Of a stretch of 64,000 nt of DNA, positions 557 through 45,290 are shown one piece after another. Within the stretch, counting starts at the first letter, position 1. The number at the start of each line of letters is the position of its first letter. This DNA comes from Mesorhizobium sp. J8 (GTDB lineage: Bacteria; Pseudomonadota; Alphaproteobacteria; Rhizobiales; Rhizobiaceae). The notes beneath the pieces are model-generated. The model did no database searches. It saw nothing but the letters and a program-made list of their open reading frames with translations, and had not been told where the DNA came from. The stretch is taken from contig NZ_AP024109.1 in assembly GCF_016591715.1 (NCBI RefSeq), positions 4,898,001 through 4,962,000 of the forward strand, in the 5' to 3' direction. The translations under genes and the position numbers were made by a program.

Positions 557-570
557 TTGACCGCCGTCAA
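557..570. promoter_or_regulatory. FNR/FixK-type site upstream of arcD
   Basis: Perfect TTGA-N6-TCAA (TTGACCGCCGTCAA). Its centre is 66 nt before the arcD ATG, which leaves room for an FNR class II promoter and a leader of about 25 nt. Anaerobic control of arc genes by FNR/ANR proteins is well known in other proteobacteria. Confidence 0.8.
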
Positions 571-629
571 GGCTGGCAAGCCTAATTCCTGTTGAACTGC
601 TCCCATCGTTCCAAAGGTGGGAGGGCCTC

Positions 630-2099
630 ATGGCCACGACAGACATCAATTTCCCTGCCCGGGCAGAAGCTGCCAGCCCGGCTACGGCCAAGCTGCGATT
701 GGGCTCCCTGACAGCGCTCGTGGTCGGCTCCATGGTCGGCTCGGGCGTCTTCAGCCTGCCCCAGAACATGGCGGCCGGCGCTGGCCCGCTTGCAATCCTG
801 ATCGGCTGGGCCATCACCGCGGTCGGCATGCTGGCACTCGTGTTCGTCTACCAGTCGCTGGCGGTGCGCCGGCCGGAGCTCGATGCCGGCCCCTACGCTT
901 ACGCCAAAGCCGGCTTCGGTCCCTTCATCGGCTTCAACAGCGCCTGGGGCTATTGGATCAGCGCATGGGTCGGCAACGTCTCCTACGCGGTGGTCGTGTT
1001 CAGCGCGCTGTCCTATTTCTTCCCTGCTTTCGGTGACGGGAACACCTGGCAGGCGGTGCTCGGCGCCTCGATCCTGCTGTGGGCCATCCACTTTCTGATC
1101 CTCGCGGGCATTCGCCAGGCTGCAGTCGTCAACACCCTCGTGACCGTGGCCAAGATTGCTCCGGTCGTTCTCTTTGTCGGCGTTGTCGCCGTTGCCTTCA
1201 GGCTCAAAGTCTGGTCGCTCGACTTCACGGGTCTTGGCAATGCCTCGCTCGGTACCATCGCGGCTCAGGTCAAGAGCACGATGCTGGTGACGTTGTGGGT
1301 CTTCATCGGTATCGAAGGCGCCAGCGTTTTCTCTGCGCGAGCCGAGCGGCGCAAGGACATCGCGACGGCAACCGTACTCGGTTTCTTCACCTGCCTTGGG
1401 CTTTACGCGCTGGTCTCGCTGCTTTCGCTCGGCATTCTGAGCCAACCCGACCTCGCCGCCCTGAAGAACCCATCCATGGCGGGCGTGCTGGAGGCGGTCG
1501 TCGGGCCGTGGGGGGCGGTGCTCATCAATGTTGCGCTTGTCGTCTCGGTCGTCGGCGCTTTCCTCAGTTGGACCCTGCTTGCCGCCGAAATCCCGCATGT
1601 CGCCGGCAAGGACGGGACGATGCCGAGATTCTTCGGCCACGAGAGCGAACGCGGCGTCCCCTCGACCTCCCTGCTGATCACCAACCTGCTTGTCCAGGCC
1701 TTCCTGGTGATCACACTCTTTGCCCAGAGCACATACCAGGCGCTGTTCTACATCGCTTCGGCGGCAATTCTCGTTCCCTACATCTTCTCCGGCGCCTTTG
1801 CCGCGAAGCTTGCAATGACCGGGGAGAGCTATGAGAGCGGCGAGCGGCGTTCCGGCCCACTTTTCGCTGGCGTGCTGGCAACGATCTACGGGCTGTGGCT
1901 CGTCTATGCGGCGGGACCAGCGTATCTGTTCATGTGCGCGATCCTTTATGCACCGGGCATCGTCTTCTACGTCTGGGCCCGCCGCGAGGCCAATCAGCGC
2001 GCCTTCAACCCGGTGGAGGCCCTCATAGCCGTCGCGCTCGTCGCCGTCGCAATCCTTGCCGCCTACGAGATGTGGACCGGCGCCGTCCGCGCGCTTTGA
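630..2099 (+). CDS. arcD: Arginine/ornithine antiporter (APC family)
   Basis: 489-aa polytopic APC-superfamily permease of the basic amino acid/polyamine antiporter group. The GSMVGSGVFSLP motif in the first helix (about residues 33-44) and about twelve hydrophobic segments support this. It is first in an arcDABC order and is followed 11 nt later by arginine deiminase, so arginine import coupled to ornithine export is the expected role: it feeds the deiminase pathway and removes its end product. The start ATG at 630 lies behind a GGTGGGAGG-like ribosome-binding site. The long antisense frame opposite this gene is a GC-rich shadow. Confidence 0.93.
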   Translation: MATTDINFPARAEAASPATAKLRLGSLTALVVGSMVGSGVFSLPQNMAAGAGPLAILIGWAITAVGMLALVFVYQSLAVRRPELDAGPYAYAKAGFGPFIGFNSAWGYWISAWVGNVSYAVVVFSALSYFFPAFGDGNTWQAVLGASILLWAIHFLILAGIRQAAVVNTLVTVAKIAPVVLFVGVVAVAFRLKVWSLDFTGLGNASLGTIAAQVKSTMLVTLWVFIGIEGASVFSARAERRKDIATATVLGFFTCLGLYALVSLLSLGILSQPDLAALKNPSMAGVLEAVVGPWGAVLINVALVVSVVGAFLSWTLLAAEIPHVAGKDGTMPRFFGHESERGVPSTSLLITNLLVQAFLVITLFAQSTYQALFYIASAAILVPYIFSGAFAAKLAMTGESYESGERRSGPLFAGVLATIYGLWLVYAAGPAYLFMCAILYAPGIVFYVWARREANQRAFNPVEALIAVALVAVAILAAYEMWTGAVRAL

Positions 2100-2110
2100 G
2101 AGGCGGTCCC

Positions 2111-3325
2111 ATGGCAAATCTGGGGGTTCATTCGGAAGTCGGCCGCCTGCGCGAGGTGATGGTCCACCGGCCTGATCTCAGCCTGCGCAGGCTGACGCCT
2201 GATAACTGCAAGTCGCTGCTGTTCGACGACGTGTTGTGGGTGAAACGGGCCCGCCAGGAGCACGATGTCTTCGTCGATGCCCTGCGTGAGCGCGGCGTGG
2301 TGGTTCATTCGTTCGGCGAACTGCTTGCCGAGACCATGGGGGTCGGCAAGGCGCGCGACTGGCTGCTTGACCGCCGGGTGCACGCCGGAGTGGTCGGCCT
2401 TGATATGGTCGACGAGATGCGAGGCTGGCTGAACGAGATGTCGGCCGGCCTGCTGGCAACATGCCTGGTCGGCGGTATCGCCCGCGCCGAGCTGCCGTTC
2501 GAGCCCAAGGGGCTCACCGGAAGAACGCTCGCGCCTCAGGACTTCGTCCTGCCGCCATTGCCCAACCAGCTCTTCACCCGTGACAGCTCCTGCTGGATTT
2601 ATCGCTCCGTGTCGGTCAACCCGATGTATTGGCCAGCGCGACGACCCGAAGCCGCAAATGTCGAGGCGGTCTATCGTTTCCACCCGCGCTTCCGCGACAG
2701 CGGCATTCCGTTCGTATCGCCTCAGGCAGGAACCGGTATCAGCCTGGAAGGCGGCGACGTCATGCCTGTCGGCGGGGGCGTCGTTCTGGTCGGAATGGGA
2801 GAACGCACGACGCCGCAAGCGGTCGGCGATCTCGCCCGCAGCCTATTCGCCGCCGGTGAAGCCACACATGTGCTCGCGGCGCTGATGCCGCGCGACCGCT
2901 CCTTCATGCATCTCGACACCGTTTTCACCTTCTGCGACCGTGACCTTGCAACCATGTATCCGCCCGTGGTCGACAGGCTGCGCACCTTCTCGATCCGGCC
3001 CGGAGACGACGATGCGGCGGTCTCGGTCAGGGAAGAGAACGCCCCCTTCACAAAGGTCGTGGCGGAGGCTCTCGGCCTTAAATCGCTGCGCATCATCGCC
3101 ACCGGCGGCGACCGCTACGAGGCCGAGCGCGAGCAATGGGACGACGGCAACAATGTTGTCGCGGTCGAGCCGGGCGTCGTCATCGGCTACGACCGCAACG
3201 TCTACACCAACACGCTTCTGCGGCGCGCCGGTATCGAGGTGATCACCGTCGAGGGCGCCGAGCTAAGCCGCGGCCGCGGCGGCGGTCACTGCATGACCTG
3301 CCCGGTCGCCCGCGATCCCATCTGA
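2111..3325 (+). CDS. arcA: Arginine deiminase
   Basis: 404-aa enzyme that hydrolyses L-arginine to citrulline and ammonia, the first step of the deiminase pathway. Family signatures are visible: N-terminal SEVGRLREVMVHRP, the FTRDSS segment, the FMHLDTVFTF segment with the catalytic His, EGGDVMP, and the C-terminal GRGGGHCMTCP with the nucleophilic Cys near residue 394. The frame extends upstream inside arcD, but ATG 2111 is correct because the conserved N-terminus begins there (MANLGVHSE). Only 11 nt separate it from arcD and 11 nt from arcB, so it is in one transcript with them. Length is typical for the family. Confidence 0.97.
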   Translation: MANLGVHSEVGRLREVMVHRPDLSLRRLTPDNCKSLLFDDVLWVKRARQEHDVFVDALRERGVVVHSFGELLAETMGVGKARDWLLDRRVHAGVVGLDMVDEMRGWLNEMSAGLLATCLVGGIARAELPFEPKGLTGRTLAPQDFVLPPLPNQLFTRDSSCWIYRSVSVNPMYWPARRPEAANVEAVYRFHPRFRDSGIPFVSPQAGTGISLEGGDVMPVGGGVVLVGMGERTTPQAVGDLARSLFAAGEATHVLAALMPRDRSFMHLDTVFTFCDRDLATMYPPVVDRLRTFSIRPGDDDAAVSVREENAPFTKVVAEALGLKSLRIIATGGDRYEAEREQWDDGNNVVAVEPGVVIGYDRNVYTNTLLRRAGIEVITVEGAELSRGRGGGHCMTCPVARDPI

Positions 3326-3336
3326 AAGGACATCCA

Positions 3337-44823: not shown

Positions 44824-44837
44824 TTGACCGCAATCAA
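44824..44837. promoter_or_regulatory. FNR/FixK-type site upstream of the host-attachment-like gene
   Basis: Perfect TTGACCGCAATCAA, centre 96.5 nt before ATG 44734. Confidence 0.7.
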
Positions 44838-44890
44838 AATCGACTGCGCTTTGACTGGGTCCTTCATAGAGAAGGCGTTCAACCGCTGAG

Positions 44891-45187
44891 CTAATTCGGG
44901 CAGAAGGCGGAATGCAGCGCCTCGATCACCGTGAGCACCTCCGGCCGCGTGATCCGATAGTAGACCGTTGTCCCTTCCCGACGGGCTTCAACCAACCCAT
45001 CAGCCCTTAGCCGCATGAGTTGTTGCGACATCGGCACCTGGTCGATGTCGAGCAATTCGCGCAACTCGCCGACGGAGCGCTCCTCGTTGCCGAGCGCGCA
45101 CAGCACGAGCAGACGCTGCGGGTGGGACAGGCTCCGGAGCAGTTCCGCTGCTTTGTCCGAGGCCGGGATCATATCTCTTACATTCAT
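44891..45187 (-). CDS. ArsR-family repressor, BigR/SqrR-like
   Basis: 98 aa from ATG 45187; the longer frame upstream has no conserved sequence. It is a winged helix-turn-helix (ELLRSLSHPQRLLVLCALGNEERSVGELRELL... YYRI). Two cysteines, in LLVLCALG and near the C-terminus in HSAFCPN, sit where the sulfide/persulfide sensors BigR and SqrR carry their redox pair. It is divergent from the SQR gene, so it is probably the sulfide-responsive repressor of that operon. Confidence 0.82.
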   Translation of the reverse strand: MNVRDMIPASDKAAELLRSLSHPQRLLVLCALGNEERSVGELRELLDIDQVPMSQQLMRLRADGLVEARREGTTVYYRITRPEVLTVIEALHSAFCPN

Positions 45188-45213
45188 ATTCTTGAATTTA
45201 AAATCTTTGAATG
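45181..45213. promoter_or_regulatory. Candidate BigR/SqrR operator
   Basis: The perfect 10-bp palindrome ATTCTTGAAT (45188-45197) lies inside a larger inverted pair CATTCA...TGAATG (45181-45186 and 45208-45213), overlapping the repressor's start codon. AT-rich ATTC/GAAT repeats are the kind of operator reported for BigR-type repressors. Confidence 0.55.
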
Positions 45214-45276
45214 TTATCTGCAAGGCCACGGGCCGTGGCGCCGCCACCTTACATCGGAGCCGCCCTGTTTGGGAAT

Positions 45277-45290
45277 TTGAGCCTGATCAA
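45277..45290. promoter_or_regulatory. FNR/FixK-type site upstream of sqr
   Basis: Perfect TTGAGCCTGATCAA, centre 58.5 nt before the GTG at 45342. Confidence 0.75.

What the first reader, a model, noticed from the sequence alone, without database searches (positions are those of the whole stretch)
557..45290. A low-oxygen regulon island defined by 21 perfect FNR/FixK sites in about 45 kb
I counted 22 perfect TTGA-N6-TCAA sites in the window, 21 of them between 0.5 and 45.3 kb. At an assumed 62 % GC, random sequence would give well under one per 64 kb. Most sit 58-80 nt (centre to start codon) upstream of unrelated genes: arcD, groEL, cytochromes, usp, phasin, BON, Nramp-like, sqr. This points to one regulator driving metabolism, chaperones, proteases and transporters together.
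Basis: partly seen in the sequence, partly recalled or inferred. Interest (0 to 1): 0.85.

Follow-up and report, generated by a model that had tools for sequence, protein, structure and literature searches.

The report
Low-oxygen regulon island in Mesorhizobium
A roughly 100-kb stretch of this soil bacterium's chromosome gathers most of the genome's best-matching binding sites for an oxygen-responsive switch, set at matching distances in front of many unrelated survival genes, so it looks like one oxygen-controlled survival kit whose pieces also occur, reshuffled, in related bacteria and on plasmids.

Summary
The window has 25 perfect TTGA-N6-TCAA sites (0.63 expected), 22 of them at 557-45290. 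The cluster runs another 52 kb upstream: 35 sites in 97.5 kb. Genome-wide, 29 of 45 canonical sites (TTGAY-N4-RTCAA; control pattern 5) lie in those 97.5 kb of 6.69 Mb. The genome is probably a Mesorhizobium.

The sites look functional. In orthologous promoters 80 of 94 keep a perfect site, against 20 of 170 where our gene has none; 62 of 80 sit within 5 nt of the same distance (shuffled mean 17.6). Across 84 promoters a -10-like block falls 29.5-34.5 nt past the site centre, as in class II FNR promoters.

The island encodes FixLJ, a FixK-type regulator, high-affinity oxidase, arginine deiminase, GroEL, FtsH, Usp and BON genes. Parts of the same pool recur, block-shuffled, in other Mesorhizobium and on plasmids (33 canonical sites in a 201-kb S. 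fredii conjugative plasmid).

It works like Burkholderia lxa plus the FixLJ-FixK cascade; clustering and modular reuse are the new part. Oxygen dependence is inferred, not shown; several regulator genes in the island are broken.

The parts
557..570 (+). perfect site, centre 66 nt before arcD
   Evidence: at 65-71 nt in G004, G036, G028, G021, four of four orthologues
630..2099 (+). arcD arginine-ornithine antiporter
   Evidence: NCBIfam TIGR03810 612 bits, cut-off 591
2111..5242 (+). arginine deiminase, ornithine carbamoyltransferase, carbamate kinase (arcA-argF-arcC)
   Evidence: Pfam ADI, OTCace, AA_kinase
5811..6776 (-). alpha/beta-hydrolase-like ORF (name by eye; missed by the gene caller), divergent from groEL
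   Evidence: 74% identical stretch in G028 only
6868..6881 (+). perfect site, 95 nt before groEL
   Evidence: perfect at 93-94 nt in G009 and G027, one mismatch in G036
6900..6913 (+). perfect site, 63 nt before groEL
   Evidence: 61-62 nt in G036, G009, G027, three of three orthologues
6970..8592 (+). GroEL
   Evidence: NCBIfam GroEL over cut-off
8657..12944 (+). ABC exporter: ATPase, FtsX-type permease, HlyD-type adaptor
   Evidence: Pfam
13540..13553 (-). perfect site, 63 nt before ORF 13046-13483 (no Pfam family)
13677..13690 (+). perfect site, 63 nt before cytochrome b561
13747..14367 (+). cytochrome b561-type protein
   Evidence: Pfam PF01292
14404..16800 (-). cation-transporting P-type ATPase
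   Evidence: Pfam
17014..18725 (-). two universal stress proteins
   Evidence: Pfam Usp
18778..18791 (-). perfect site, 59 nt before Usp
   Evidence: 59-60 nt in four of four orthologues
18925..20654 (-). c-type cytochrome and DegP-like trypsin/PDZ protease
   Evidence: Pfam
20689..20702 (-). perfect site, 41 nt before cytochrome c
   Evidence: 41-42 nt in G006 and MspET125, at 247 nt in G021, none in G028
20963..21540 (-). 65-aa ORF and phasin-like protein
   Evidence: Phasin_2 E 7e-4, below cut-off
21594..21607 (.). perfect site between divergent genes (60 nt to 65-aa ORF, 116 nt to flavin reductase)
21634..21647 (+). perfect site, 76 nt before flavin reductase
   Evidence: 79-88 nt in G006, M. 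erdmanii and MspET125, none in G036, G009, G027
21717..22250 (+). flavin reductase-like protein
   Evidence: Pfam PF01613
22274..22287 (+). perfect site, 70 nt before Usp
   Evidence: 59-73 nt in seven of seven orthologues
22351..23178 (+). universal stress protein
   Evidence: Pfam
23447..24097 (-). triple-BON protein (marker used for searches)
   Evidence: Pfam BON, 3 stretches
24171..24184 (-). perfect site, 80 nt before BON gene
   Evidence: perfect at 74-86 nt in 11 of 12 orthologues, one mismatch at 81 nt in the twelfth
24235..26073 (-). FtsH protease; no perfect site within 160 nt here
   Evidence: NCBIfam over cut-off; sites at 64-75 nt in G036, G009, G027
26654..26667 (+). perfect site before Nramp-like gene (61 or 91 nt by start chosen)
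26722..28029 (+). Nramp-like transporter (called as 26398-28029; start moved by eye)
   Evidence: Pfam Nramp
28378..28391 (+). perfect site, 67 nt before a 71-aa ORF
   Evidence: perfect in five of five aligned relatives
28452..28667 (+). overlooked conserved 71-aa protein, no Pfam family
   Evidence: hits in 8 of 18 loci, the six shown at 71-94% identity; alignment
28708..28721 (.). perfect site, no clear gene; a perfect site recurs at the aligned place in 4 of 5 relatives
29463..30545 (-). M50 peptidase with CBS domain
   Evidence: Pfam
30623..31242 (-). two conserved ORFs (61 and 148 aa), no Pfam family
   Evidence: each with hits in 4 of 18 loci
31282..31295 (-). perfect site, about 46 nt before the 61-aa ORF
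31381..31590 (-). ChaB-like protein
   Evidence: Pfam PF06150
33153..33166 (-). perfect site, 67 nt before 214-aa ORF 32448-33092 (no Pfam family)
33290..33303 (.). perfect site, no clear gene
34629..35330 (-). CBS-BON protein
   Evidence: Pfam
35555..35568 (.). perfect site, 231 nt from CBS-BON gene
36168..36181 (+). perfect site, 77 nt before Usp
   Evidence: 78 nt in G027, the one orthologue compared
36252..37031 (+). universal stress protein
   Evidence: Pfam
37169..37796 (-). second FixJ, split over two frames (37296-37796 and 37169-37501)
   Evidence: FixJ receiver and GerE HTH in different frames
37786..39105 (-). second FixL-like kinase; N-terminus apparently split over frames near 39.1-39.2 kb
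   Evidence: NCBIfam FixL best hit 532 bits, cut-off 850
40260..43370 (-). MacB-type ABC exporter (ATPase, permease, adaptor)
   Evidence: Pfam; one-mismatch site 158 nt upstream, also a one-mismatch site at 158-163 nt in four of four orthologues
43688..44164 (+). cupredoxin-like protein
   Evidence: Pfam
44330..44734 (-). Host_attach / baeRF family protein
   Evidence: Pfam
44824..44837 (-). perfect site, 96 nt before host-attachment-like gene
   Evidence: perfect in 1 of 5 orthologues (G006, 105 nt), one-mismatch matches at other distances in four
44891..45229 (-). ArsR-type regulator
   Evidence: Pfam HTH_5
45277..45290 (.). perfect site between divergent ArsR (54 nt) and sqr-like gene (58 nt)
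   Evidence: both distances within 7 nt in G036 and G021
45342..46634 (+). sulfide:quinone reductase-like flavoprotein (name from the finding; Pyr_redox_2 domain)
   Evidence: Pfam

Best explanation
A low-oxygen regulon island. About 100 kb of chromosome (about -53 kb to +46 kb in window coordinates) collects dozens of transcription units for micro-oxic respiration, fermentation, denitrification, proteostasis and persistence. Many carry their own class II promoter with an FNR/FixK box centred at -41.5. When oxygen falls, heme-PAS FixL would phosphorylate FixJ, FixJ would raise the island's FixK-type regulator, and this together with the chromosomal Fe-S regulator FnrN would bind the boxes and switch the whole set on (mechanism of these families recalled). 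Gene-plus-box units stay coupled while blocks are gained, lost and reshuffled between chromosomes and plasmids. Shown here: clustering, site conservation, promoter geometry, presence of the regulator genes, recurrence in relatives and on plasmids. Inferred: oxygen response, which regulator acts, and transfer.
For: 29 of 45 canonical sites in 97.4 kb. Orthologue promoters: 80 of 94 keep a site against 20 of 170; restricted to proteins 55-80% identical, 39 of 47 against 17 of 98, paired spacers sharing on average 3.2 of 6 letters. -10-like block at +29.5 to +34.5 in 84 promoters, and an oriented G two bases past the box in 67 of 84; in 17 own sites the G is present in 16 towards the gene, 6 away. 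FixJ over its cut-off; FixL-like kinase; FixK-type regulator with best solved relative FixK2 4i2o E 6e-42, no Cys, helix TIETVSR. Parts of the gene pool in seven other genus members, G031, three named loci and four rhizobial plasmids. Published precedent: direct FixK2 targets in B. diazoefficiens include Usp, CBS and host-attachment genes (PMC6515984, passages); an sHSP with this box is FnrN-dependent and about 50-fold microaerobically induced in R. leguminosarum (PMC11784457, abstract and passages).
Against: No expression data. FixL and FixK hits are below NCBIfam equivalog cut-offs. The island's FnrN copy before ccoN and the second FixLJ pair are broken, so part of the island may be decaying. 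Not all island genes have a perfect site (e.g. FtsH here), and some sites are not kept in some orthologues (flavin reductase, host-attachment, cytochrome c). In own sites alone the -10 signal is modest. A similar gene set on Novosphingobium pLA4 has no site excess (2 against control 2), so the set can exist without this switch. Four of the plasmids looked at are typed non-mobilizable.
Confidence: 0.78

Rival explanations
1. An ordinary acquired stress-tolerance island (lxa- or tLST-like) in which the FNR/FixK boxes serve only a core of respiratory genes and the rest are chance or incidental.
For: Similar gene families form an island without site excess on Novosphingobium pLA4 (2 in 336 kb against control 2); the R. 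etli p42d stretch has 5 perfect sites and the Phenylobacterium stretch 2 in 41 kb.
Against: In Mesorhizobium the non-respiratory genes (Usp, BON, GroEL, arcD, sqr) carry well conserved sites; own-site promoters keep sites in 80 of 94 orthologues against 20 of 170.
Confidence: 0.1
2. The boxes are read mainly by a nitric-oxide regulator (NnrR/DNR type) or by several CRP/FNR proteins, so the island is a denitrification/NO regulon rather than an oxygen regulon.
For: The island holds a second CRP/FNR gene beside a multicopper oxidase (NirK by eye) and a pseudoazurin-like gene (by eye; Pfam); I take it as NnrR-like by position and eye, one search gives it only weak CRP/FNR-family hits. The DNR box resembles the FNR box (recalled).
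Against: Only one block concerns denitrification; the fetched stretches of G004, G036 and G021 show no nirK match yet hold other island genes and sites (whole genomes not searched for nirK). FixJ and a FixK-type gene are in the island, and an FnrN with open frame is in the genome.
Confidence: 0.07
3. A decaying remnant: the island was a working regulon but is losing its regulators in this genome.
For: Broken FnrN copy, second FixJ and FixL split, split nitroreductase.
Against: First FixL and FixJ, the FixK-type gene and chromosomal FnrN have open frames, and sites keep distance and consensus. Assembly error at the frameshifts is not excluded.
Confidence: 0.05

Closest known systems
lxa (low-oxygen-activated) locus, Burkholderia cenocepacia BCAM0275-BCAM0323
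   Same: About 50 clustered genes induced together at low oxygen; six Usp, alpha-crystallin, BCAM0309 named FtsH; a FixK/FNR-type regulator BCAM0049, whose B. dolosa homologue FixK is under FixLJ (passages of PMC6127331 and PMC3759415; Usp list PMC9733578 passages).
   Different: Betaproteobacterium; BCAM0049 lies outside the locus numbers. The primary paper (Sass 2013) is not held, so I could not check box density or per-gene boxes. Ours also holds cbb3 oxidase genes, arginine deiminase, phosphoketolase, a nirK-like gene and FixLJ.
FixLJ-FixK2 regulon of Bradyrhizobium and FnrN/FixK regulons of Rhizobiales
   Same: Same regulators and box; cco, hemN, hemA, nirK and regulator genes are known targets (PMC4999443 sections 8 part 1 and 24); Usp, CBS and host-attachment genes are direct FixK2 targets (PMC6515984 passages).
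   Different: Section 24 of PMC4999443 names no Usp, GroEL, BON, FtsH, phasin or arginine deiminase targets and describes no island; its supplements were not read.
Extended FNR regulons (PMC2908626)
   Same: FNR regulon membership varies greatly between close species; uspA predicted in the core FNR regulon (passages).
   Different: The passages describe variable target lists; the terms genomic island and cluster of genes do not occur in its main text.
tLST / locus of heat resistance (recalled) and DosR dormancy regulon (recalled, and PMC6127331 passages)
   Same: Transferable or hypoxia-linked sets rich in Hsp20, proteases and Usp.
   Different: Different regulators (recalled); membership was not tested.

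Membership tests
FNR/FixK class II promoter set | TTGA-N6-TCAA boxes far above chance | tested here: met
   25 against 0.63; canonical 45 against 5 genome-wide
FNR/FixK class II promoter set | box conserved at the same distance in orthologous promoters | tested here: met
   62 of 80 within 5 nt, shuffled mean 17.6, max 28 of 1000 shuffles
FNR/FixK class II promoter set | -10 element 29-34 nt past the box centre | tested here: met
   A/T-rich TA..TT block in 84 promoters; weaker but same place in own sites
FNR/FixK class II promoter set | regulator- and oxygen-dependent transcription | not testable with these tools
   no expression data
FixLJ-FixK cascade | FixJ | tested here: met
   NF006900 305.6 bits, cut-off 255
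FixLJ-FixK cascade | FixL oxygen-sensing kinase | tested here: inconclusive
   NF041777 best hit, 560 bits, cut-off 850
FixLJ-FixK cascade | FixK: CRP/FNR type without Fe-S cysteines | tested here: inconclusive
   no Cys; FixK2 best PDB hit; NF050806 best hit but 187 bits, cut-off 300
lxa locus | about 50 or more clustered genes with several Usp, Hsp20 and FtsH | tested here: met
   95 gene calls between -53 and +47 kb, some doubtful; 6 Usp over Pfam cut-off, FtsH; Hsp20-like gene by eye, matching Hsp20-annotated genes on the S. fredii and R. lentis plasmids
lxa locus | activation at low oxygen | not testable with these tools
   no expression data
lxa locus | orthology and synteny with BCAM0275-0323 | not tested
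   locus not fetched

The most novel reading that the evidence does not exclude
Portable regulon islands: across rhizobia (and perhaps Variovorax and Phenylobacterium) an oxygen regulon is kept as a physically clustered, self-contained collection of promoter-plus-gene cassettes with its own FixK-type regulator, moving on conjugative plasmids and growing or shrinking by cassette exchange, so that a recipient gains a whole low-oxygen programme at once. The extreme case may be a plasmid largely given over to one regulon (S. fredii pSF45436d, 33 canonical sites in 201 kb, control 0).
Probability: 0.5. Interest if true: 0.78.

Novelty: new variant of a known kind. Interest (0 to 1): 0.62.

Why it matters
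FNR/FixK regulons are usually described as lists of targets. Here most of a genome's canonical boxes (29 of 45) sit in 1.5% of it, and many of the same genes keep the same box at the same distance in rearranged islands of other species. That makes it testable why a regulon clusters (co-transfer, a local regulator source) and gives a ready list of low-oxygen survival genes, including unnamed small proteins, for rhizobia, which must survive waterlogged soil and near-anoxic nodules.

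Tried and rejected
Empty-site test: left (5.4 kb) and right (7.4 kb) flanks were searched in 16 genus genomes. Matches of 5 kb or more above 80% identity appeared only in G031 (left, 92%) and G061 (right, 88%); the G031 match is on another contig than its site clusters and the G061 match some 350 kb from its cluster, so no insertion boundary was resolved. No tRNA in the six 20-kb pieces around the window nor in it; no Rfam match at gathering scores in the window. Chance, composition and uniform density rejected. The 14 canonical sites outside 4.846-4.964 Mb: 5 lie inside ORFs of a crude caller, 9 are intergenic, among them one 38 nt before a ccmI-like gene and one 114 nt before a Usp-like gene (both by eye). 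A Cupriavidus plasmid stretch with a BON homologue had 3 perfect sites in 41 kb and was not followed. Paper searches for a described FNR/FixK island (lxa: 10, 35) listed none in rhizobia by title or start of abstract; eight papers were opened, the others seen as listings only. PMC5991415 (passages) reports strain-dependent expression enriched on pSF45436d and has no mention of FixK or FnrN.

Gene calls are from my own codon-model script, not a standard caller; it missed or mis-started several genes, and distances depend on its starts. Orthologues from close relatives (80-95% identical) are not independent, hence the 55-80% subset. Adjacency figures count only genes found in the stretches fetched. 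Four doubtful gene calls (100, 101, 103, 104) were left out of the counts.

Full report
What was checked. Twenty-two lie at 557-45290. The window is C1:4898001-4962000 of a 6,690,860-bp single-contig genome. It has a nifH over the NCBIfam cut-off at 1.53 Mb.

Density. The genome has 94 perfect sites against 24 for the reversed control pattern. The canonical form TTGAY-N4-RTCAA occurs 45 times against 5. Thirty-one of 45 lie in 4,845,848-4,964,050 and 29 of 45 in the 97.4 kb ending at 4,943,300. The densest 100 kb holds 29; 2000 random placements reached at most 7. The cluster therefore starts about 52 kb before the window; the 184 kb read around it holds 40 perfect sites, 35 of them in the 97.5 kb. 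Of the 14 canonical sites elsewhere, 5 are inside ORFs.

Contents. Upstream of the window: phosphoketolase, a multicopper oxidase (NirK by eye), a radical-SAM enzyme (HemN by eye), FixO, FixG, a heavy-metal P-type ATPase, an aminotransferase-fold enzyme (5-aminolevulinate synthase by eye) and two Usp proteins; a FixL-like kinase, FixJ and a CRP/FNR regulator closest to FixK2 among solved structures with no cysteine and the helix TIETVSR; a further CRP/FNR gene (NnrR-like by eye; only weak family hits). In the window: arginine deiminase pathway, GroEL, exporters, cytochromes, P-type ATPase, Usp proteins, DegP-like protease, phasin-like (below cut-off), BON and CBS-BON proteins, FtsH, Nramp, M50 peptidase, host-attachment-like protein, ArsR and an Sqr-like flavoprotein. 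Two regions that my gene caller left empty encode conserved small proteins; a 71-aa ORF at 28452-28667 has a site 67 nt upstream, kept in five of five aligned relatives, and hits in 8 of 18 comparison loci.

Are the sites functional? For 25 called genes with a site 30-130 nt upstream, 80 of 94 orthologous promoters also have a perfect site within 160 nt; for genes without one, 20 of 170. Of the 80, 62 are within 5 nt of our distance; shuffling gives 17.6 on average and 28 at most in 1000. With orthologues 55-80% identical the figures are 39 of 47 against 17 of 98, and paired spacers share 3.2 of 6 letters, one of 38 pairs being identical. Examples: arcD 65-71 nt in five genomes counting ours, groEL 61-63 nt in four, Usp at 18.7 kb 59-60 nt in five loci, BON 74-86 nt. 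Against: the flavin reductase site is missing in three of six orthologues, the host-attachment site is perfect in one of five, the cytochrome c site is kept at its place in two of four.

Promoter geometry. Aligning 84 sites 50-100 nt before own or orthologous starts shows an A/T-rich TA..TT block 29.5-34.5 nt past the centre, preceded by G at +27.5 (49 of 84), and a strong G two bases past the box (67 of 84) followed by C or T. This places the centre at -41.5, the class II position. In 17 own sites with one downstream gene the G is present in 16 towards the gene and 6 away from it. The 84 are not independent, and in own sites alone the -10 signal is modest.

Regulators. Twelve HTH_Crp_2 matches pass the cut-off genome-wide. 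In the island: the FixK-type gene, the further CRP/FNR gene, and an FnrN copy before ccoN that is spread over three frames here while G031 has an open 270-codon stretch at the same place. An FnrN with open frame and the cysteine cluster lies at 1.718 Mb. A second FixLJ pair in the window is broken. Which regulator acts is open.

Recurrence. In stretches of seven other genus members, 3-48 island genes per stretch were found at 55% identity or more, in blocks whose order and orientation differ; own-adjacent pairs still adjacent were, for example, 10 of 15 (G004), 12 of 18 (G036), 30 of 35 (G028), so shuffling is of blocks rather than of single genes. G031 is nearly colinear with our left half (34 of 35 pairs); on another contig it runs arc genes - flavin reductase - Usp without the genes we have between. 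Of our flanking genes before -53.7 kb and beyond 51.3 kb only two, near +90 kb, matched above 45% identity in those stretches. Genus-wide, 61 genomes (ours included) have 3-90 canonical sites against 0-11 control; clusters are visible in G009 (three contigs) and G010 (13 sites in 41 kb) (capped list). The BON marker at 60% or more occurs in 8 of 61 genomes searched, ours included.

Plasmids. The BON protein has matches on 173 plasmid records, 94 of them typed conjugative. Canonical sites: Mesorhizobium pB2-1-1 15 in 461 kb, Shinella 3 in 428 kb, S. fredii pSF45436d 33 in 201 kb, R. lentis p1 27 in 877 kb, controls all 0; Phenylobacterium 15 in 383 kb (control 0), Variovorax 24 in 938 kb (control 1), Novosphingobium pLA4 2 in 336 kb (control 2). 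The S. fredii and R. lentis islands encode proteins with the TIETVSR helix and without an N-terminal FNR-type cysteine cluster. pSF45436d, pLA4 and the Phenylobacterium plasmid are typed conjugative; pB2-1-1, which has trb genes beside the island, and the Shinella, R. lentis and Variovorax plasmids are typed non-mobilizable.

Comparison with what is known. The nearest system is the Burkholderia lxa locus (passages), the nearest mechanism the FixLJ-FixK cascade and FnrN. Individual target families are known; the clustering of most canonical boxes of a genome in one modular island, and its recurrence on plasmids, I did not find described in the searches listed under Tried and rejected.

Verdict. 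A real, functional-looking low-oxygen regulon island, wider than reported. Oxygen dependence, the acting regulator and mobility remain inferences.

Noticed in passing
window 28452-28667: Unannotated 71-aa protein conserved in relatives (71-94% in the six shown), no Pfam family, with its own box 67 nt upstream.
   Followed up: partly
window 37169-39337: Second FixL-FixJ pair with frame breaks in FixJ and near the FixL N-terminus.
   Followed up: partly
window 31887-32446: Nitroreductase-like gene (by eye) split over two frames; both pieces match G027 and G036.
   Followed up: partly
L003 10130-10955 (window -29870 to -29045): FnrN copy before ccoN spread over three frames; G031 has an open frame there.
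   Followed up: partly
site flanks, island promoters: Orientation-specific G (then C/T) two to three bases past the box towards the gene, 67 of 84; could separate true class II boxes from chance ones.
   Followed up: partly
W03 = NZ_CP029234.1, S. fredii pSF45436d: 33 canonical boxes in a 201-kb conjugative plasmid: possibly a plasmid largely devoted to one regulon.
   Followed up: partly
L110, Novosphingobium pLA4: Similar Usp/P-type ATPase/BON/phosphofructokinase island without any box excess: perhaps another regulator.
   Followed up: no
L112, Phenylobacterium zucineum plasmid: Low-oxygen-type genes mixed with ClpB, YfdX, DUF308, TrxC, Hsp20 and DegP genes, resembling a heat-resistance locus (recalled).
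   Followed up: no
window 28257-28355: C-terminal ChaB-like remnant; an intact ChaB lies at 31381-31590, suggesting a local duplication or inversion around the M50 gene.
   Followed up: partly
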